Below, piece after piece: positions 7,636 to 15,781 of a stretch of 38,863 nt of DNA; the first letter of the stretch is position 1; each line of letters opens with the position of its first letter. Origin of the DNA: Pleurocapsales cyanobacterium LEGE 06147 (lineage in GTDB: Bacteria; Cyanobacteriota; Cyanobacteriia; Cyanobacteriales; Xenococcaceae); NCBI GenBank assembly GCA_015207585.1, contig JADEWQ010000051.1, positions 1 through 38,863 on the forward strand, read 5' to 3'. A program made the translations under genes and the position numbers. A model generated the notes under the pieces. The model was not told where the DNA came from and searched no databases. It saw only the letters and a list, made by a program, of their open reading frames with translations.

Positions 7636-7693
7636 CTTCGGCAGCACGCGATCGACAGGTCGCTTATGGTGCCCGTGTCGTGTGAGGAGATCT

Positions 7694-10243
7694 ATGAGTC
7701 AACGTCCAAAAATTTTCTTGACCCCTTTGAAATTGATCTTAACTGGAGTGGTGTTTACAGTTCCTTTGGCTAAAGTAGAAGCGAGTCAGGCACAAGTTCC
7801 ACAAACAGCGATCGCTACCTCTGTAACCACGGAAGAATGGCTGTCACAACTGCAAAGTCAGGAGTCAGTAACTCTTGTTCGAATTACGAGTGTCCGTCTC
7901 AATCCTACTGCTGAAGGCTTAGAGATTGCTCTGGAAACTGCAACAGGAAAATTATCTTCTCCCGTAACTTCTATCGTTGGCAACGTCCTGATCGCCGATT
8001 TTCCCAATGCGATATTAGCTTTGCCAGATGGTGAAGAGTTTTTAGCAGCCGAACCAGCCGAGGAAATTGCGTTTCTTTCGGTAACCAATTACCCAGAAAA
8101 TCGAGTACAGGTAGCAATTACTGGTTTGAATGTTCCCCCAACGGCGAAGGTAAGAACGGAAGCACGGGGTTTGGTATTGAGTGTAGTACCTGGAAAAGCA
8201 CAACAGACAGGGGAAGAGGAAGAAGACGAAATTCAGGTGGTGGTTACTGGCGAACCAGCAGAGGATGATTACTACGTTCCGAATGCTACCACTGGAACTA
8301 GAACCGATACTCCAATCCGCGATATTCCCCAATCTATTCAGGTAATTCTTCGGCAGGTGTTGGAGGATCAAGGAATTACCCAAATTGGTGAAGCACTCCG
8401 TAATGTTAGCGGCATTGGGCAACCCAGAACAACTGATCCAGTTTCTGGAGATTATGTTACATTACGCGGTTTTGATCCTGGTAGTGCTTATTTCGTTAAT
8501 GGTCTGAGGAATCCCTTTGGTGGAAACAACATTAATTTGGAAGCGGAAAATATTGAACAAATTGAAGTGTTGAAGGGACCTGCTTCCGTCCTTTACGGTC
8601 AGGTAGAACCGGGCGGAATCATCAATATAACGACGCGGCAACCGCTGTCAGACCCCTACTATGCTTTTGGAGGAACTATTGGTAACTTTGACTTTTACCG
8701 ACCGACGCTGGATTTTTCCGGTCCTCTGAATTCTGAAGAAACCATACTCTATCGTTTAATCGGGGCTTATCAAAACTCAGGAAGCTTTGTCGATTTCATC
8801 GAGCTTGAGAGCTATTTTGTTGCACCCGTTCTCAGTTTCCAATTAGGTAAAAACACAAGGATCGCGCTCGAAGGGCAATACCTCGATCGATCTGGAATTT
8901 CATTCAACGGTTTGCCTGCAAGCGGAACAATCCTCTCTAATCCTTTAGGAGAGCTTCCAAGAGATCGTTTTTTAGGAGATCCAGAAGCGGGGGGGTTACA
9001 AGATCGCCGTTTGGGAAGTATTGGCTATCGGTTAGACCATAAGTTTAGTAAGAATTGGTCAATTCGTAACGCCTTTCGCTTCGATTCTTTACATACTGAT
9101 GAACAATATATTTTCTTCACAGGTCTCGAAGACGATAACCGAACTTTAAACCGTGAAGTCGGTGCTGCGGTTTCGATTAGCGAGAATTACACCCTACAAA
9201 CCGATGCAATCGGTGCATTTAATACAGGAGCAGTCGAACATGATGTCGTCTTTGGTGCAGAACTACGCCGCTACACATATGCTGGCGAATATTCCTCGGC
9301 TGAGGTTGCCCCCATTGATATATTCGCTCCGATCTACGGTATATCACCCGGCGAATTTACATTAGGTTCAGACACTGTTTATCGACAAAATTTGCTGGGA
9401 ATTTATATTCAAGATCTTGTCTCAATTACAGACAATCTCAAGCTCTTGCTGGGTGGACGGTTTGATTTAGTCGATCAACAGACAGATGAAGCAGTAGCGG
9501 ACGACTCATTTAGTCAGGAAGATACGGCATTTAGTCCCCGTATTGGTATTGTCTATCAACCGATTCAGCCGATCTCGTTGTATGCAAACTTCAGCCGCTC
9601 ATTTGTACCCATTACATTTGGTCAGCGAAATGCAGATGGAACCCCTTTTGAGCCAACCACGGGTGAACAGTTTGAAGTCGGCGTGAAAACCGAGTTTCTA
9701 GACGGCAGAGCATTTGCCACCCTAGCTGCTTACGAAATCACAAAACAAAATATCATTAACTCCGATCCCGATCGCCATGGCTTCAGTATCCAAATTGGGG
9801 AACAGCGAAGTCGCGGCATTGAACTGGATGTTGCTGGTGAACTGTTTCCTGGATTCAATCTGATTGCAAATTATGCTTATATCGATGCTGAAATTACCAA
9901 AGACACCAGTGGTATTGAGGGGAATCAACCCGCCAACGTACCTCAGCATAGTGCCAGTTTGTGGGCAACCTATGAAATTCAAGCAGGAGATTTGCAGGGC
10001 TTAGGCTTCGGAACAGGTGTCTTGTTTGTTGGGGAGCGGCAGGGAGATTCAGAGAATACATTTGAAGTGCCAAGTTTTGTCCGCACCGATGCAGCCGTTT
10101 ATTACCGTCGAGACAATTGGAGAGTTGGATTGAACATCAGGAACTTGTTTGATGTGGAATATTTTGAGGGTGCCTTTAGTCCAAATATAGTGTATTACGG
10201 CGCACCCTTCACTATTTTGGGAACCGTTGAAGTCAAGTTTTGA
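7694..10243 (+). CDS. TonB-dependent siderophore receptor with AMIN domain
   Basis: An 849-residue outer-membrane receptor. Order: signal peptide (~1-33, hydrophobic LILTGVVFTVPLA); AMIN domain (~60-165, VTLVRITSVRLNPTAEGLEI to ARGLVLSVVP in pieces); TonB-box-like EIQVVVTG; plug domain with DTPIRDIPQSIQVI and IEVLKGPASVLYGQVEPGGIINI; then a 22-strand barrel ending in FTILGTVEVKF with the C-terminal aromatic residue needed for outer-membrane insertion. It fits the FhuA/ferrichrome-type ferrisiderophore class; the ligand cannot be read from sequence. The ATG at 7694 is chosen over a GTG at 7682 because AGGAGA lies 4 nt before it. A PepSY gene follows after 14 bp, so the two are one operon downstream of the AraC gene. 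Confidence 0.92.
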   Translation: MSQRPKIFLTPLKLILTGVVFTVPLAKVEASQAQVPQTAIATSVTTEEWLSQLQSQESVTLVRITSVRLNPTAEGLEIALETATGKLSSPVTSIVGNVLIADFPNAILALPDGEEFLAAEPAEEIAFLSVTNYPENRVQVAITGLNVPPTAKVRTEARGLVLSVVPGKAQQTGEEEEDEIQVVVTGEPAEDDYYVPNATTGTRTDTPIRDIPQSIQVILRQVLEDQGITQIGEALRNVSGIGQPRTTDPVSGDYVTLRGFDPGSAYFVNGLRNPFGGNNINLEAENIEQIEVLKGPASVLYGQVEPGGIINITTRQPLSDPYYAFGGTIGNFDFYRPTLDFSGPLNSEETILYRLIGAYQNSGSFVDFIELESYFVAPVLSFQLGKNTRIALEGQYLDRSGISFNGLPASGTILSNPLGELPRDRFLGDPEAGGLQDRRLGSIGYRLDHKFSKNWSIRNAFRFDSLHTDEQYIFFTGLEDDNRTLNREVGAAVSISENYTLQTDAIGAFNTGAVEHDVVFGAELRRYTYAGEYSSAEVAPIDIFAPIYGISPGEFTLGSDTVYRQNLLGIYIQDLVSITDNLKLLLGGRFDLVDQQTDEAVADDSFSQEDTAFSPRIGIVYQPIQPISLYANFSRSFVPITFGQRNADGTPFEPTTGEQFEVGVKTEFLDGRAFATLAAYEITKQNIINSDPDRHGFSIQIGEQRSRGIELDVAGELFPGFNLIANYAYIDAEITKDTSGIEGNQPANVPQHSASLWATYEIQAGDLQGLGFGTGVLFVGERQGDSENTFEVPSFVRTDAAVYYRRDNWRVGLNIRNLFDVEYFEGAFSPNIVYYGAPFTILGTVEVKF

Positions 10244-10257
10244 TTGAAGTACCAACC

Positions 10258-11358
10258 ATGAAAGTGAAACGACTCCGTAGCCTCACCTTCTACCTGCATC
10301 GCTACATCAGGTTAGCGGTAGGGTTGATTTTGGTTATTGTTGGTCTTACTGGCAGCATTCTGGTATTCCGAGAAGAAATTGACCATTTTTTGCTGCTCCA
10401 AAGAACTGGCACAATTGTTCCTCAAGGCAATCCGCTGCCGATTCAAACGTTGCTGGAGACGCTTCAGCCACTGGCAGCAAAGCACCCTAACCTTACGATT
10501 AGCGCAGTCAGTTTCTATCCTAAACCTACCGATCCAATCCGCTTTTGGCTCACCGACAATGGCAGATGGGAGATTGCAGCAACGCTCAATCCATATACAG
10601 GTAAACTCCTAGATACCTATAACTTTTGGACAAGTTTCTCTGGGTTCTTCTACAGCCTGCATTATGAACTATTGGCAGGTGAAATTGGGCTGAAGATTGT
10701 TGGCATTGTGGCGTTACTGACATTCGTCTTGAGCTTTACAGGTTTAATTCTCTGGCCCGGTTGGCGCAAGCTGATGGCTGGATTCAAGATCAAGTGGAAC
10801 GCACATCCCAAACGGGTGAATTTTGACATTCACAAGGTTGTTGGGATGATCGCGGCTGTGTTCTTGGCAATGACTGCGTTCACGGGCTTTTGCTGGAATT
10901 TTTATGACGTAACTGTGCCCATCATCTATGCCGCGACCTTCACGCCAGAACCGACTGCGGTGGTTTCTACCCCGATCGCTCATCAAACCCCTATTACTCC
11001 CGATGTCGCTCTACTTAAAGCCAATGCTGCTCTACCGGAAGGACGGGTAACCTATCTGGGGTTACCGACAAAACCCGAAGACACTTACAGCATCTCGAAA
11101 AAACTGCCTAACGAGAATGGCAATAGTTTTGTTTATATCGATCGATATAGCGGTAAAGTGTTACGGGTCGATGATAGCCCCCAGGCAAAGTTGGGCGATC
11201 GCATTCTTAATTCCTTTACTCCCCTACACTATGGCACGTTCGGTGGGTTACTCACACGGATTTTGTATGTGTTTGTAGGGTTAGCTCCAACGATTTTGCT
11301 GATTACGGGTTTTGTCATGTGGCGCTATCGTCGTCGAGTGAAGGGCAATTCTATGTAA
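10258..11358 (+). CDS. PepSY-associated transmembrane protein, probable iron-regulated reductase
   Basis: A 366-residue inner-membrane protein of the PepSY_TM (PiuB-like) family. Transmembrane helices are visible at the N-terminus (LAVGLILVIVGLTGSILVF), after the first periplasmic domain (GLKIVGIVALLTFVLSFTGL), at GMIAAVFLAMTAFTGFCWNF and near the C-terminus (VGLAPTILLITGFVMW). Conserved histidines lie near membrane ends: YLHRYIRL, LHYELLAGE, HPKRVNFDIHKV and PLHYGTFGG. Related FoxB and FpvG proteins are heme-containing ferrisiderophore reductases, so these histidines may bind heme (inference). The ATG at 10258 is used rather than a TTG at 10240 that overlaps the receptor stop. It is co-transcribed with the receptor. 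Confidence 0.88.
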   Translation: MKVKRLRSLTFYLHRYIRLAVGLILVIVGLTGSILVFREEIDHFLLLQRTGTIVPQGNPLPIQTLLETLQPLAAKHPNLTISAVSFYPKPTDPIRFWLTDNGRWEIAATLNPYTGKLLDTYNFWTSFSGFFYSLHYELLAGEIGLKIVGIVALLTFVLSFTGLILWPGWRKLMAGFKIKWNAHPKRVNFDIHKVVGMIAAVFLAMTAFTGFCWNFYDVTVPIIYAATFTPEPTAVVSTPIAHQTPITPDVALLKANAALPEGRVTYLGLPTKPEDTYSISKKLPNENGNSFVYIDRYSGKVLRVDDSPQAKLGDRILNSFTPLHYGTFGGLLTRILYVFVGLAPTILLITGFVMWRYRRRVKGNSM

Positions 11359-11478
11359 AATAGTAAGGGCAGTCGCTCTATCAAAACGAGTTGATTACTA
11401 ACTGACGACTCACCAATTTCCGTTGGATGCACCGATGTAATTTCTGTGTAGCTCCTAAAGTCCCCTAATATTTTAAGT

Positions 11479-12411
11479 ATGAACCTCGATCGCGAATTGC
11501 GGATAGTCTCTCTTCTCCCCAGTGCCACAGAAATTGTAGCTGCTTTGGGACTAACGGATGTTTTGGTAGGAAGGTCACACGAATGCGACTATCCTCCAAT
11601 GGTGCAAAACCTACCTGTTTGTACTACCGCTAGACTAGATACCAACAAACCCAGTTTCAAAATCGATACCGACATACAAACTTTATTAGAATCTGCTCTG
11701 AGTATCTACGGCATCAAATCGGAAGTCTTAGAACAACTACGACCAACCCATATCATTACTCAGGATCAATGCGATGTTTGTGCGGTCAGCTTTGCCGATG
11801 TAAAAAAAGCAGTGGCTCAACTTACCCAAAGCAATCCCCAGGTTATTTCTCTACAACCTAATAAGTTAACAGATGTTTGGGCAGATCTCGAGCGAGTTGC
11901 CCAAGCGTTAGGTGTTGACGAAAAACCCGTTTTAAGTCAGTTGCAATCTCGAATTGAGTTTTGTCGATCTCGCCTTAGTTCTCTTCCAGCAGAATCTTTA
12001 CCTACCGTTGCTGCTATTGAGTGGACAGATCCGATTATGACTAGTGGCAATTGGATTCCCGAACTCATTGAACTAGCTGGAGGTAAAAATTTATTTGGCA
12101 CTGTGGGAGAACATTCTCCTTATATTCAGTGGCAAGAATTGGTAAAAGCAGATCCAGACTGTATTATTATCATGCCTTGCGGTTTCGATTTAGAACGTAC
12201 CCGACAAGAATCTCAATCCTTAACTCAACAGCCTAATTGGTCAAATTTGCAAGCTGTCCAAAAGGGTAAAGTTTTTATTACTGATGGCAATGCTTATTTT
12301 AATCGTCCTGGCCCTAGATTAGTAGATTCTTTAGAAATTTTGGCAGAAATTTTACATCCAGAGTTGTTTGATTTTGGCTACCGAGGAACCGGATGGGAAG
12401 TCTATGCTTAA
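11479..12411 (+). CDS. BtuF-like cobalamin-binding periplasmic-type protein
   Basis: A 310-residue class III substrate-binding protein. The N-terminal strand IVSLLPSATEIVAALG, then GRSHECDYPP, CDVCAVS and the C-terminal YFNRPGPRLVDSLEILAEILHPE match cyanobacterial BtuF-type cobalamin-binding proteins; it lacks any transport permease neighbour. There is no signal peptide or lipobox at the N-terminus, unlike the E. coli protein, so it may be cytoplasmic or exported by another route. It follows the PepSY gene by 120 bp on the same strand. No cobalamin riboswitch elements were found upstream. Ligand assignment (B12, heme or another metal chelate) rests on family resemblance only. Confidence 0.82.
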   Translation: MNLDRELRIVSLLPSATEIVAALGLTDVLVGRSHECDYPPMVQNLPVCTTARLDTNKPSFKIDTDIQTLLESALSIYGIKSEVLEQLRPTHIITQDQCDVCAVSFADVKKAVAQLTQSNPQVISLQPNKLTDVWADLERVAQALGVDEKPVLSQLQSRIEFCRSRLSSLPAESLPTVAAIEWTDPIMTSGNWIPELIELAGGKNLFGTVGEHSPYIQWQELVKADPDCIIIMPCGFDLERTRQESQSLTQQPNWSNLQAVQKGKVFITDGNAYFNRPGPRLVDSLEILAEILHPELFDFGYRGTGWEVYA

Positions 12412-12555: not shown

Positions 12556-12896
12556 TCTTACTTCTCAAGCGTGGATTCGGGTGCGCCTCACCCTATTCTC
12601 GTAGAGTTCTGTTTTATTCCAGAATTGATTACTACTCACTCAGTTTCCTACAAGATTTTACCTTTCCACGGAAAGACTGAGACTAATGGAATTGAACCCT
12701 ATATCTTGAATTGTCTAGGTGCGTGATATCGGTTAGATATCTAAGGTTTTTATCCAGGTTGATTACCTTGCCTGTAAGAATATTATATTATTAGTTGTTC
12801 GCTCTCTCACCGCAGGTGTGCGGAGCAACCCCATTACTAGAGGTGAGGGTCTTCCCGCTCACAAAGATAATTTTAGTATTTCTTAAAAATCGAACA

Positions 12897-13115
12897 ATGG
12901 CAGCAAAAATTAAAAAAGGTTCACTAGTACGCGCAGTACGAGAAAAATTAGAAAATAGCCTCGAAGCGAAAGCAAGCGACACTCGCTATCCTCCTTATAT
13001 CTTTGAAAGTAAAGGAGAAATTGTGGATATGAACGATGAATATGCCTTAGTCAAGTTTTACGTACCTACTCCCAATATTTGGTTTCGCCTCGACCAACTA
13101 GAATTAGCCGAATAG
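12897..13115 (+). CDS. ndhO: NAD(P)H-quinone oxidoreductase subunit O
   Basis: A 72-residue protein matching NdhO, a small cyanobacteria- and chloroplast-specific subunit of the photosynthetic NDH-1 complex on the thylakoid membrane. Diagnostic blocks are [40 protein letters not shown] and [12 protein letters not shown] followed by WFRLDQLE. The ATG at 12897 gives the normal family length; the longer upstream frame (from 12795) encodes residues unlike the family. It is a peripheral subunit with no membrane span. It stands alone between a repeat-containing intergenic stretch and a second 400-bp gap. Confidence 0.93.
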
Positions 13116-13525
13116 TACTTGCCATAGTATTTTAAAAAAGGCGATCGCCATCTTTGTTTAGTTGGCTCGATCGCTCTTGTCATCTGAGTTTTTCCAAGTA
13201 AGAATTAATGATTTTTTAAATCATTACAGTTACTTTTGATAAACGAGATAACTTTAAAACAAATTTAATCTTAAGTTACTTGTTTTATAGGTTTGAGTTT
13301 TAGGAATATACCTATCTTTGAATGTAGTTTTTACAGAGGTTTGTTTTCTTTGCTTATTAATTTAGAAAGCGCTCGCGACTGCAAGGAGCGAACCCCTCGG
13401 GAAGAAGTAGAGAAACACAAAAAAAAAGATTTTTGAGCGATAAGCTGCATAAAACTTGACTACGCCTCATATTGATTAGTAACAACAACACAACACTAAT
13501 TCAGTTCACTTAGAGGTCTAGAACA
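13116..13525. other. AT-rich intergenic region without genes
   Basis: About 410 bp with no convincing frame. It contains a HIP1 octamer near 13141, a short GC-rich patch (13366-13402) sharing GAGCGAACCnCTCG with an insertion inside the SNF2 gene at 20186-20199, and a possible -35 TTGACT near 13457 upstream of the secreted-protein gene. Confidence 0.45.
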
Positions 13526-13873
13526 ATGAAAAAATCACTCTCGATTCTCGCTACCGTTGCTTTAGCTTTCTCTCCCGTAGCTGTTTTCGCTCAAGAAGTA
13601 CAAACCAACATTCAAGGTGCTTCTAACTCCGCAGCAGCAGTAGGTCAGGGTAACTTCGTCAATCAAAACATCGACCAAGCCAGCTTCCAAGACCAACTGC
13701 AAGTAGACGGCTACTACTACGGCGCAGACCCTCAAGCACAAATCTCCGTCCAAGATGCGTCTAACTCCGGTGCTGCTGTCGGTACTGATAACTTCGTCAA
13801 TCAAGATATAGACCAACTCAACGGACAAATCCAAACCGATGTAGGTGGCTACGGCTATCACCTGCCCTACTAA
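13526..13873 (+). CDS. Small secreted protein with two curlin-like repeats
   Basis: A 115-residue secreted protein. The signal peptide covers residues 1-22, ending AVFA before QE. The mature part has two 26-residue repeats, at 26-51 and 72-97, with the shared pattern ASNSxAAVG, two residues, then NFVNQxIDQ. The alternating Gln, Asn and small residues resemble curlin (CsgA) repeats that build amyloid beta-solenoids, though spacing differs and only two copies exist. Tyr/Gly-rich linkers (GYYYGAD, GGYGYH) follow each repeat. The start has a strong Shine-Dalgarno GAGGTC 9 nt upstream. No curli export gene (csgG) is nearby. Amyloid formation is inference; identity to a named family is not claimed. 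Confidence 0.75.
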   Translation: MKKSLSILATVALAFSPVAVFAQEVQTNIQGASNSAAAVGQGNFVNQNIDQASFQDQLQVDGYYYGADPQAQISVQDASNSGAAVGTDNFVNQDIDQLNGQIQTDVGGYGYHLPY

Positions 13874-13895
13874 CGAACGTTTCGCGCTTCAAAGA

Positions 13896-13956
13896 TTGTG
13901 GTCATCGATGAAGCGAGAGTTGGGATAATGCCCCACTACTCGCTTATCGCCACAAA
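13896..13956 (+). terminator. Large stem-loop after the curlin-like gene
   Basis: TTGTGG...GATGAAGCGAG pairs with CTCGCTTATCGCCACAA, with the inner segments AGTTGGG and CCCCACT extending the stem around ATAATG. It lies 23 bp after the stop codon. GTTT follows rather than a long T-run, so it may stabilise the 3' end as much as terminate. Confidence 0.5.
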
Positions 13957-14006
13957 GTTTATTGGGAATGTAAGGTCAATTGAAGATGTTCATAATAGAT
14001 TTAATA

Positions 14007-14016
14007 TCTAGACCTC
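14007..14016. promoter_or_regulatory. Exact complement of the shared Shine-Dalgarno motif
   Basis: TCTAGACCTC is the perfect reverse complement of GAGGTCTAGA, which forms the ribosome-binding region of both neighbouring secreted-protein genes (13513-13522 and 14256-14265). If all lie on one transcript, this segment could pair with either site and mask it. Visible as complementarity only. Confidence 0.4.
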
Positions 14017-14050
14017 TGAAGATGACGGGCGACACAAGCCAAGGGGTCGT

Positions 14051-14071
14051 GGGCTGAATCGTATTCAGCCC
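14051..14071. repeat. Perfect 9-bp hairpin
   Basis: GGGCTGAAT, loop CGT, ATTCAGCCC. It lies in the middle of the 400-bp gap between two secreted-protein genes and has no following T-run on either strand. The rest of the gap (13874-14273) shows no gene. Confidence 0.5.
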
Positions 14072-14273
14072 CTTGTGAACCCCGTCTGCCGTGCGACGAC
14101 AGGGACGCGCCCTTACCTTAGCCCAACTAAGTTTCCTCCTAGTCATCGGGTTGAGGTCATTTTTTTACTTTCGACTCTTAAATCAAATATCGTTTTGGTG
14201 TTTGGTTTTTAAGTGCATACTCGTCGCCACACAACAGTAATAGCGATCGACAATTGAGGTCTAGAGAAACATA

Positions 14274-14660
14274 ATGATTAAGAAAGTTAATTTACTCTCT
14301 GCCGCTAGCTTATTATCCCTGTCGGCTCTAATTCCCTTCCTGGCAACCCCTAAAGTTAATGCTTGTGCTACAACTGACGTGCTGACTCAAGTAGCAATTC
14401 ACGGTTCGCAACAACCTGCTACTCAATCGGGTAACTTCAACCAAAGTAGCGATGGCAATTGTCTGGGCAACAGCGTTACTGGCACTACGACTCAACTGTA
14501 TGTGGGTTCAGATCCTGTCGAGCAAACCTATGAGGGCAATCAATTTGTCGGTGGTGAGTTTAATCAAACTGGCGTGAGTTCTCCCGTCATTCAAACTCCA
14601 GTCCACGTACCTGTCGATGTCTACAGTCCCGCTCACGATCCGAGTTTCTTTGGTTTTTAG
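14274..14660 (+). CDS. Small secreted Gln/Asn-rich protein
   Basis: A 128-residue exported protein of unknown function. The signal peptide (~1-30) ends KVNA before CATTD. The mature protein has two cysteines (C31 and one in DGNCLGNS), which could form a disulfide, and a Gln/Asn/Thr/Gly-rich body: TQSGNFNQSS, GNSVTGTTTQLY, GNQFVGGEFNQTG. The xGNxxQ spacing resembles the curlin-like repeats of the gene upstream, but no clean repeat can be drawn. The C-terminus is Pro/Val/His-rich. It has the same ribosome-binding sequence GAGGTCTAGA as the upstream gene, suggesting duplication or common control. Confidence 0.65.
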   Translation: MIKKVNLLSAASLLSLSALIPFLATPKVNACATTDVLTQVAIHGSQQPATQSGNFNQSSDGNCLGNSVTGTTTQLYVGSDPVEQTYEGNQFVGGEFNQTGVSSPVIQTPVHVPVDVYSPAHDPSFFGF

Positions 14661-14729
14661 GAAGGGTGCATAAATTCATCTTGACGCTCGTATTATCTGA
14701 GTGAACCGATTAACTCAGAGGTAAGTAAG

Positions 14730-15176
14730 ATGAAAAGCATTCACCACAACAAAAAATTAACTGCTTCCTTAGCGATCGCCTTAACTGTGAGCATCAGTAC
14801 CTTTTCTACACCCCAACCCGCTTCGGCACAAATTTTACAATTAGCTACTGGAGCGATGAACGCTCTGTTTAACCGTCCTCCCAAACCTCTTGCTAATAGG
14901 AATTACACCTTTGGAGCCAACAATCTCAACGGCAATACCTTCAATCTGTGCTTGTTTCCCTGTACTCCTGGTGGTATGCCTTCTCCGGTTCGCTTTCCTG
15001 TAGGACAAGTACCTTCAGTTTCTTCTAGAGCTATTTCTCCACAAGGCTCTTTTTCCCAAAGTAGAGTTTCTACTCAAACGGGTACTTTGCCTCCAGGGGT
15101 AGTACCGCAACCGACTCCTCCTCGTCCTACTCTAGTCGTTCCTCCTATCAAGTTACCTATTAATTTACCCCTGTAG
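14730..15176 (+). CDS. Secreted proline-rich protein of unknown function
   Basis: A 148-residue exported protein. The N-terminal signal peptide is KLTASLAIALTVSISTFS, with probable cleavage after PASA (residue ~33). The mature region is low-complexity: AMNALFNRPPKP, NNLNGNTFNLCLFPCTPGG (two close cysteines), then Ser/Gln-rich and Pro-rich segments ending PPIKLPINLPL. No enzymatic motif is seen. A GAGG ribosome-binding site lies 8 nt before the ATG. It is the third small secreted gene in a row, only 69 bp after the previous one, so the last two may be co-transcribed. Probably extracellular or surface-associated. Confidence 0.6.
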   Translation: MKSIHHNKKLTASLAIALTVSISTFSTPQPASAQILQLATGAMNALFNRPPKPLANRNYTFGANNLNGNTFNLCLFPCTPGGMPSPVRFPVGQVPSVSSRAISPQGSFSQSRVSTQTGTLPPGVVPQPTPPRPTLVVPPIKLPINLPL

Positions 15177-15475: not shown

Positions 15476-15781
15476 CTAAACGAGACCCACTTCATGAGCA
15501 GCACGGCTTAACATCGATGCAGCACGGTTTTTAACGGCTTTTTCTTTATTGAGCATTAGCCATCGGGCTTTTTCTCGAACATCTATGCCTGTATTTACTG
15601 GACGATTAGCATAAGCTACACCACGATAAGTTAAGTTAACGGGTGGTTGCAAAACAGGTGGTTTTTTAAGGTTGTGGAATCGCCAATCTAGTCCGCGAAA
15701 CTTACCCGCAACTGTACCTTCATTTACTGCAACTGTTGGGGGATTATAGTCGTAGCTGACACCGCGATAAGTAAGCTTCAT
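15476..15781 (-). CDS. DUF4278 domain-containing protein
   Basis: A 101-residue protein with the cyanobacterial DUF4278 motif LTYRGVSYDYNPP at its start and a second copy, LTYRGVAYANRP, around residue 50, so the motif is duplicated. Between them lies GKFRGLDWRFHN. The C-terminal half is basic and helical (REKARWLMLNKEKAVKNRAASMLSRAAHE). The family has no established function; members are small stress-associated cyanobacterial proteins. Its ATG overlaps the stop of the upstream small frame by ATGA, and a clear intrinsic terminator follows. Confidence 0.85.
   Translation of the reverse strand: MKLTYRGVSYDYNPPTVAVNEGTVAGKFRGLDWRFHNLKKPPVLQPPVNLTYRGVAYANRPVNTGIDVREKARWLMLNKEKAVKNRAASMLSRAAHEVGLV

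What the first reader, a model, noticed from the sequence alone, without database searches (positions are those of the whole stretch)
13526..15176. Three consecutive small secreted proteins, the first with curlin-like repeats
The first protein has two near-identical 26-residue Gln/Asn repeats (ASNSxAAVG..NFVNQxIDQ) like amyloid curlin units; the second is Gln/Asn/Gly-rich with two cysteines; the third is proline-rich. All have signal peptides and short spacing. They could form an extracellular fibre or sheath set that standard annotation would call hypothetical.
Basis: partly seen in the sequence, partly recalled or inferred. Interest (0 to 1): 0.55.

Follow-up and report, generated by a model that had tools for sequence, protein, structure and literature searches.

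The report
Secreted repeat proteins with matching sRNA
Three small secreted cyanobacterial proteins, one of them a curli-like but non-curli repeat protein present in many copies per genome, share one unusual promoter-like sequence, and two of the three families also carry a leader sequence that exactly matches an uncatalogued small-RNA-like gene, which suggests that their making is switched as a set.

Summary
The three ORFs are real, but they are neither curli nor an operon. Gene 1 is two 46-residue Q/N/G repeats; AlphaFold2 gives two long beta-arches at moderate confidence. The curli unit QxGxxN occurs in 0 of 63 homologues, Curlin_rpt and CsgG are not found in this genome. Gene 1 belongs to a dispersed family (8-15 match places per genome in the seven richest genomes), almost confined to Xenococcaceae.

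What unites the trio is regulation. TGCATA-N15-17-CNTA precedes 61 of 63 gene-1, 9 of 13 gene-2 and 19 of 19 gene-3 homologues but 0 of 334 neighbouring ORFs. A leader motif, GAGGTCTAGA (up to two mismatches), precedes 57 of 63 gene-1 and 10 of 13 gene-2 homologues, 0 of 19 gene-3 and 0 of 334 controls. Its exact complement is the invariant unpaired stretch of a small-RNA-like gene with a covarying terminator and no Rfam match, found in 7 of 8 gene-1-rich genomes and, with altered seed, in 1 of 19 other family genomes.

Most likely: a co-expressed set of secreted matrix or fibre proteins whose translation an anti-Shine-Dalgarno sRNA holds off. Export, fibre formation, transcription of the RNA and repression are inferred. 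Against it: pgr5 carries the motif too, and pairing is weaker in one genus.

The parts
13446..13471 (+). promoter-like element of gene 1: TGCATA (13446-13451), 16 bp, CATA (13468-13471)
   Evidence: TGCATA before 61 of 63 gene-1 homologues; two-box form in 61 of 63 against 0 of 334 controls
13513..13522 (+). GAGGTCTAGA leader motif over the ribosome-binding site of gene 1
   Evidence: exact in 29, within two mismatches in 57 of 63 homologues; 0 of 334 controls
13526..13873 (+). gene 1, 115 aa: signal peptide plus two 46-residue Q/N/G repeats
14007..14016 (+). TCTAGACCTC, exact complement of the leader motif, in a broken remnant of the sRNA unit
   Evidence: the model gives only 15.8 bits, E 1.4, to 13993-14176, so the remnant is not supported by the model alone
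14023..14150 (.). hairpin-rich segment that appears to interrupt the sRNA unit between its seed and a GGTTGAGGTCATTTTTTT end
   Evidence: 95.5% identical over 112 bases to a segment beside the C93 copy
14214..14219 (+). TGCATA upstream of gene 2 (second box imperfect, AGTA)
   Evidence: TGCATA before 12 of 13 gene-2 homologues; two-box form in 9 of 13, the window copy not among them
14256..14265 (+). GAGGTCTAGA leader motif of gene 2
   Evidence: exact in 6, within two mismatches in 10 of 13 homologues
14274..14660 (+). gene 2, 128 aa: secreted, two invariant Cys, predicted all-beta (mean pLDDT 81)
14667..14692 (+). promoter-like element of gene 3: TGCATA (14667-14672), 16 bp, CGTA (14689-14692)
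   Evidence: two-box form in 19 of 19 gene-3 homologues
14730..15176 (+). gene 3, 148 aa: secreted, proline-rich

Best explanation
Genes 1-3 belong to three families of small secreted proteins that Xenococcaceae cyanobacteria express as one regulon from many separate genes. Each gene has its own promoter of an unrecognised type, TGCATA-N15-17-CNTA, probably read by an alternative sigma factor. Gene 1 is the many-copy structural subunit: a signal peptide plus two 46-residue repeats that fold as stacked long beta-arches with a G-x-x-N turn and Gln/Asn ladders, and it works like a functional-amyloid or fibre subunit of the envelope or colony matrix. Gene 2 (two cysteines, all-beta) and gene 3 (proline-rich) are accessory matrix proteins. 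A small RNA of about 80 nt, with a single-stranded seed around UCUAGACCUC near its 5' end and a strong terminator, pairs with GAGGUCUAGA at the ribosome-binding site of gene-1 and many gene-2 mRNAs and blocks their translation in trans, so that one RNA silences the dispersed copies. In the two genomes of genus g2 the RNA gene has been copied behind several gene-1 copies, in places between gene 1 and gene 3. Shown: the families, the shared promoter-like element, the complementarity, the covarying terminator, the co-occurrence. Inferred: export, fibre formation, sigma factor, transcription of the RNA, repression.
For: Repeat with invariant Q, N and G positions; four predicted long strands; dN/dS 0.08-0.30 in eight pairs. 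Two-box promoter element in 61 of 63, 9 of 13 and 19 of 19 against 0 of 334. Leader motif within two mismatches in 57 of 63 gene-1, 10 of 13 gene-2, 0 of 19 gene-3, 0 of 334 controls. sRNA unit: ten invariant bases and 4 of 8 stem pairs changed on both sides in 12 sequences, 0 of 500 shuffles reach the covariation score; no Rfam match to the unit at E<=1; present in 7 of 8 gene-1-rich genomes and 1 of 19 other family genomes. Pairing stronger than any control leader for 46 of 61 gene-1, 9 of 13 gene-2 and 0 of 19 gene-3 leaders.
Against: pgr5 carries the same motif at 7 places in 6 genomes, two of which (G002, G009) show no sRNA, so the motif can exist without it. In genus g8 many gene-1 leaders have drifted by one or two bases while the RNA seed has not. 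In four gene-2 genes of genus g2 the motif lies 27-35 nt upstream, apart from a nearer GAGGT, so pairing there would not cover the ribosome-binding site itself. G016 has gene 1 but no sRNA hit (76% complete). The energy test is partly circular because the RNA was found through the motif. AlphaFold2 confidence is moderate, three of five models are near 51-54, and no structure match is significant. No export system was identified; CsgG is absent.
Confidence: 0.5

Rival explanations
1. Genes 1-3 are true curli (CsgA/CsgB-like) or Fap members that the models miss.
For: Q/N/G repeats with a G-x-x-N step; FapC, two CsgA entries and HET-s are among the seven weak Foldseek matches of gene 1, and two FapC entries among the 13 of gene 2.
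Against: QxGxxN in 0 of 63 homologues; no PF07012 match in the genome or in 55 members at E<=1; CsgG absent from the own genome and from 7 of the 8 gene-1-rich genomes; the Foldseek matches are not significant and VIA gives none at Z>=2.
Confidence: 0.07
2. The leader motif is only a strong ribosome-binding site of these cyanobacteria (SD plus CTAGA), and the sRNA-like units match it by descent or chance.
For: pgr5, one psaL-like and one Hlip-like gene share it in some genomes; two genomes with the pgr5 motif have no sRNA hit.
Against: 0 of 334 neighbouring ORFs carry it within two mismatches; the units combine exact complementarity in the pairing orientation, an invariant seed and a covarying terminator in three genera; they follow gene-1 presence in the family.
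Confidence: 0.2
3. The proteins are not fibre subunits but ordinary small periplasmic or surface proteins (for example adhesins or stress proteins) that happen to be co-regulated.
For: No fibre, dye or localisation data; moderate structure confidence; no export system identified.
Against: Invariant in-register Q/N/G repeat, many copies under purifying selection, long-strand prediction.
Confidence: 0.2
4. Gene 1 with its flanking GAGGTCTAGA...TCTAGACCTC is a small mobile unit, and the inverted motif is a terminal repeat.
For: Many dispersed copies; the complement lies behind 9 of 35 gene-1 genes in G000, G001 and G008; some copies sit at one-sided breaks in gene order.
Against: 26 of those 35 lack the inverted motif; the promoter lies outside it; 13 of 19 family loci of G001 have two or more neighbour orthologues near a family member in G008; stand-alone sRNA units exist away from gene 1.
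Confidence: 0.03

Closest known systems
Curli subunits CsgA/CsgB (Pfam PF07012)
   Same: small secreted repeat protein rich in Q, N and G; strand-turn-strand repeat with G-x-x-N
   Different: 46-residue unit with strands of about 16 residues; no QxGxxN; no csg genes nearby, no CsgG in the genome; many scattered single genes instead of one operon
FapC/FapB functional amyloid of Pseudomonas
   Same: weak, non-significant resemblance of the predicted models
   Different: no Fap-like operon seen in the neighbourhoods; no significant sequence or structure match
Cyanobacterial trans-acting sRNAs such as ApcZ (PMC8136909, passages seen)
   Same: small RNA next to a coding gene, acting on another mRNA to lower its translation (for ApcZ shown by experiment)
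   Different: no Rfam family; here an exact 10-nt anti-Shine-Dalgarno seed against a multi-copy family; stand-alone gene in three genera, behind gene 1 only in some genomes; no experiment
Alternative sigma regulons of cyanobacteria (SigJ J-box; SigF)
   Same: a regulon-specific promoter linked to surface or developmental genes
   Different: the J-box is GGGaAtacT (PMC6495340, passages seen); here TGCATA-N15-17-CNTA; the SigF core sequence was not printed in the passages seen (PMC2758279), so it was not compared

Membership tests
Curli (CsgA/B) | minimal curli repeat X6QXGX2NX10 (as given in PMC3521004, passages seen) | tested here: not met
   core QxGxxN in 0 of 63 homologues
Curli (CsgA/B) | match to Pfam PF07012 | tested here: not met
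   no match in the genome, E. coli control rings; none among 55 members at E<=1
Curli (CsgA/B) | CsgG export pore in the genome | tested here: not met
   no PF03783 match in G000; 16 of 80 genomes have one, of the eight gene-1-rich ones only G016
Curli (CsgA/B) | CsgE and CsgF in the genome | not tested
   no search was made with PF10627 or PF10614
Curli (CsgA/B) | amyloid fibre formation | not testable with these tools
   needs protein work
Fap | sequence or structure match to FapB/FapC | tested here: inconclusive
   FapC among weak Foldseek matches (E 2.2-3.2 for gene 1 list rank 2, 0.72 and 2.3 for gene 2); none at Z>=2; no PDB sequence match for gene 1
Trans-acting sRNA | conserved seed, independent terminator | tested here: met
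Trans-acting sRNA | transcribed, and alters target expression | not testable with these tools
   no expression data held
Trans-acting sRNA | member of a known Rfam family | tested here: not met
   no match to the unit at E<=1 in 16 loci
SigJ regulon | J-box GGGaAtacT at the -10 | tested here: not met
   position profiles of 61 gene-1, 9 gene-2 and 18 gene-3 promoters show TGCATA and CNTA, no GGG

The most novel reading that the evidence does not exclude
A lineage-specific functional-amyloid matrix, separate from curli and Fap, built from many scattered paralogues per genome, with its own promoter class and its own anti-Shine-Dalgarno RNA. The RNA, whose single-stranded seed is kept identical across three genera, is one off-switch for the whole matrix, perhaps between colony and dispersal (baeocyte) stages.
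Probability: 0.3. Interest if true: 0.82.

Novelty: new variant of a known kind. Interest (0 to 1): 0.62.

Why it matters
Multiple-fission cyanobacteria build tight colonies, but in the paper listings seen here nothing describes their fibre or matrix proteins. This gives concrete candidates, a promoter sequence with which to find the sigma factor, and an RNA with an exact, directly testable target. A dispersed paralogous family tied to one RNA through a conserved 10-nt stretch would be a clean case of sRNA-target co-conservation, and the repeat would be a beta-arch design distinct from CsgA.

Tried and rejected
Curli membership: rejected on repeat pattern, Pfam and CsgG. Operon or conserved neighbourhood: clustering of 819 nearby ORFs gave no shared partner gene; the largest cluster outside the three families was a 16-member kinase-like mix. 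Mobile element: weakened by shared gene order. GAGGTCTAGA as a finding in the window alone: 3 matches at up to one mismatch were reached by 20 of 100 shuffles, so the weight comes from the other genomes. Structure second look: no match at Z>=2 for either model. PDB sequence search: none for gene 1; three weak hits, E 0.69-1.4, for gene 2, disregarded. Genome-contig scan with gene 1 alone found nothing; with an alignment it found 5 loci, which gave organism names. Pattern test for a matched target in G007, whose RNA has an altered seed: none. A first reading of the C12 motif hit as a 12-aa gene start was wrong; it is the antisense of the stand-alone sRNA unit. Paper searches showed no description of this family or RNA in the listings seen; subscription papers are not held.

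Rows dropped: of 67 gene-1 profile rows in the eight genomes, 63 with a placeable start were counted; fragments, and copies that were found but never fetched, were left out. Four gene-3 starts were re-set by hand; one search had used the earlier starts and gave the same 0 of 19. Control ORFs start at the first ATG of the open frame, which may be wrong for some.

Full report
What is there. The window is contig 36 of a 6.23-Mb cyanobacterial genome (NdhO at 12894-13115 and DUF4278 at 15476-15781). G001 and G008 (genus g2) have chromosomes of 5,041,209 and 5,319,768 bases; I recall these sizes as Stanieria PCC 7437 and NIES-3757, which no call confirmed.

Gene 1. The mature protein is two 46-residue repeats (24 identities at offset 46; 0 of 20,000 shuffles reach it). 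In 16 relatives the invariant positions recur in step: Q26, Q30, N34, G40, Q47, Q55, Q57 and Q72, Q76, N80, G86, N89, Q93, with N43, Q101 and Q103 nearly invariant. AlphaFold2 on 55 sequences gives four strands (4-19, 22-38, 50-65, 68-84), mean pLDDT 69, three of the five models near 51-54. Foldseek returns seven matches, none significant (E 2.2-9.6); four of them are amyloids (FapC, two CsgA, HET-s). The VIA second look gives nothing at Z>=2. I treat this as a lead, not proof. Gene 2 is predicted all-beta (mean pLDDT 81), again with only weak matches, FapC among them, and none at Z>=2.

Not curli. The core of the minimal curli repeat, QxGxxN (PMC3521004, passages seen), occurs in 0 of 63 homologues from eight genomes. 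Curlin_rpt is not found in the genome, while the E. coli control rings, nor in 55 members at E<=1. CsgG occurs in 16 of 80 genomes, but of the eight gene-1-rich ones only in G016.

Families and distribution. Gene 1 matches 14 of 80 genomes as a single sequence and 16 of 291 of the order as a profile. Eight genomes have a strong match (E<1e-20): G000, G001, G008, G015, G016, G019, G020, G026. Match places are 9, 15, 15, 8, 2, 9, 8 and 10, fragments and distant types included. Gene 2 matches 26 of 80 and gene 3 9 of 80. Gene 1 adjoins gene 3 at two places each in G001 and G008; it adjoins gene 2 in the own genome (C36, C217, and divergently on C13); a gene-1-like protein lies beside gene 2 in G054, G077 and G068. 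Seven pairs judged orthologous between G001 and G008 and one paralogous pair have dN/dS 0.08-0.30.

Shared promoter-like element. In the eight genomes TGCATA lies within 220 bp upstream of 61 of 63 gene-1, 12 of 13 gene-2 and 19 of 19 gene-3 homologues, but of 2 of 334 neighbouring ORFs. A second box, CNTA, follows 15-17 bp later in 61 of 63, 9 of 13, 19 of 19 and 0 of 334. Gene-1 copies inherit it from each other, but three families without detected sequence relation share it. A genome-wide pattern (TGCATAA, 42-72 bp, GAGGT, ATG) has 52 matches in five genomes. By place or translation I assign 44 to gene-1 or gene-3 loci and 8 to others; the reversed pattern gives 4. It is unlike the SigJ J-box (PMC6495340, passages seen). 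None of six stand-alone sRNA loci has TGCATA within about 200 bp, so the RNA seems to be under separate control.

Leader motif and small RNA. GAGGTCTAGA sits at about -13 of most gene-1 starts: exact in 29, within one mismatch in 49, within two in 57 of 63. For gene 2 the counts are 6, 9 and 10 of 13; for gene 3 0 of 19; for controls 0 of 334. The exact 10-mer occurs 18, 24 and 18 times in G000, G001 and G008 (reversed control 7, 4, 4); by place I assign 8, 13 and 10 to gene-1 or gene-2 leaders. Behind 9 of 35 gene-1 copies in these genomes lies the complement TCTAGACCTC (7 exact, 2 with one mismatch), against 1 of the 36 other copies examined. In 7 of the 9 it is followed by a hairpin and T run; the window and C93 copies are interrupted. 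The same unit stands alone, one hit each, in G015, G019, G020, G026 and in the own genome at C12. In G015 and G019 it lies about 0.1-0.4 kb downstream of tmRNA. In 12 aligned units the ten bases are invariant while 4 of 8 stem pairs change on both sides; 95.8% of cells pair, and 0 of 500 shuffles reach the covariation score (that test does not remove relatedness). No Rfam family matches the unit at E<=1 in 16 loci.

Specificity and co-occurrence. The seed pairs with the leader better than with any of 14-101 control leaders per genome in 46 of 61 gene-1, 9 of 13 gene-2 and 0 of 19 gene-3 cases. Mean energies on gene-1 leaders beat the best of 300 shuffled seeds in 7 of 7 genomes (z -4.9 to -7.0). 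This is partly circular, since the RNA was found through the motif. Model R1 hits 8 of 80 genomes at E<=0.1. Among the 27 family genomes it is in 7 of 8 with strong gene 1 (the miss, G016, is 76% complete) and in 1 of 19 others. That one, G007, reads TATAGACC in place of TCTAGACC and has no gene-1 match. G017 has a hit at E 0.67, disregarded. The model was built from gene-1-rich genomes, and the genomes share ancestry, so this supports rather than proves.

Against the reading. A 65-aa gene, PGR5 by NCBIfam (one sequence scanned, E 1.2e-37), has the motif at 7 places in 6 genomes, five by translation and two by an identical 21-nt string. Two of those genomes, G002 and G009, show no sRNA. In genus g8 many gene-1 leaders have drifted by one or two bases without a matching change in the RNA. 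Four gene-2 leaders of genus g2 carry the motif 27-35 nt upstream, apart from a nearer GAGGT. In the window the RNA unit is interrupted and scores only 15.8 bits, less than the antisense of the gene-2 leader at 19.8, so in this genome the working copy would be C12. No expression, export or fibre data exist here.

Conclusion. The trio is best read as part of a regulon of secreted envelope or matrix proteins. As judgements I put the shared promoter at about 0.9, sRNA-target pairing at about 0.7 and fibre formation by gene 1 at about 0.5. The likeness to curli is one of working principle at most, not membership.

Noticed in passing
L048, L049, L050 (G057, G041, G068): Away from this family, gene 2 sits in clusters of small secreted proteins: another Q/N repeat protein (ITGDGNSATQ), a Cys-rich one, an Ig-like one (Big_7, E 1e-4, just under cut-off) and a 170-185-aa protein. 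Possibly an older form of the same set.
   Followed up: partly
G001/G008 (L068, L069, L087, L088, L090 and two unfetched places): pgr5, a cyclic electron transport gene, carries the same GAGGTCTAGA leader in six genomes; a psaL-like (L089) and an Hlip-like (L077) gene do too.
   Followed up: partly
L205 and L207: The stand-alone sRNA unit lies just downstream of tmRNA in G019 and G015.
   Followed up: no
G001:C1:33611 and 127617 against G008:C1:4225099: The two sides of one G008 gene-1 copy match two different G001 copies, as if recombination between gene-1 copies had rearranged the chromosome.
   Followed up: no
window 14023-14150: Hairpin-rich segment interrupting the sRNA remnant, also beside the C93 copy; it may be a small insertion element.
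   Followed up: partly
window 15476-15781 (-): DUF4278 gene whose C-terminus resembles glutamine synthetase inactivation factor IF7A below cut-off; similar small genes lie near gene-1 or gene-3 copies on C93, C80 and C225.
   Followed up: no
window 7682-12411: ORFs that look like a TonB-dependent receptor, a PepSY-like membrane protein and a periplasmic binding protein, perhaps iron-siderophore uptake; read from the translations, not searched.
   Followed up: no
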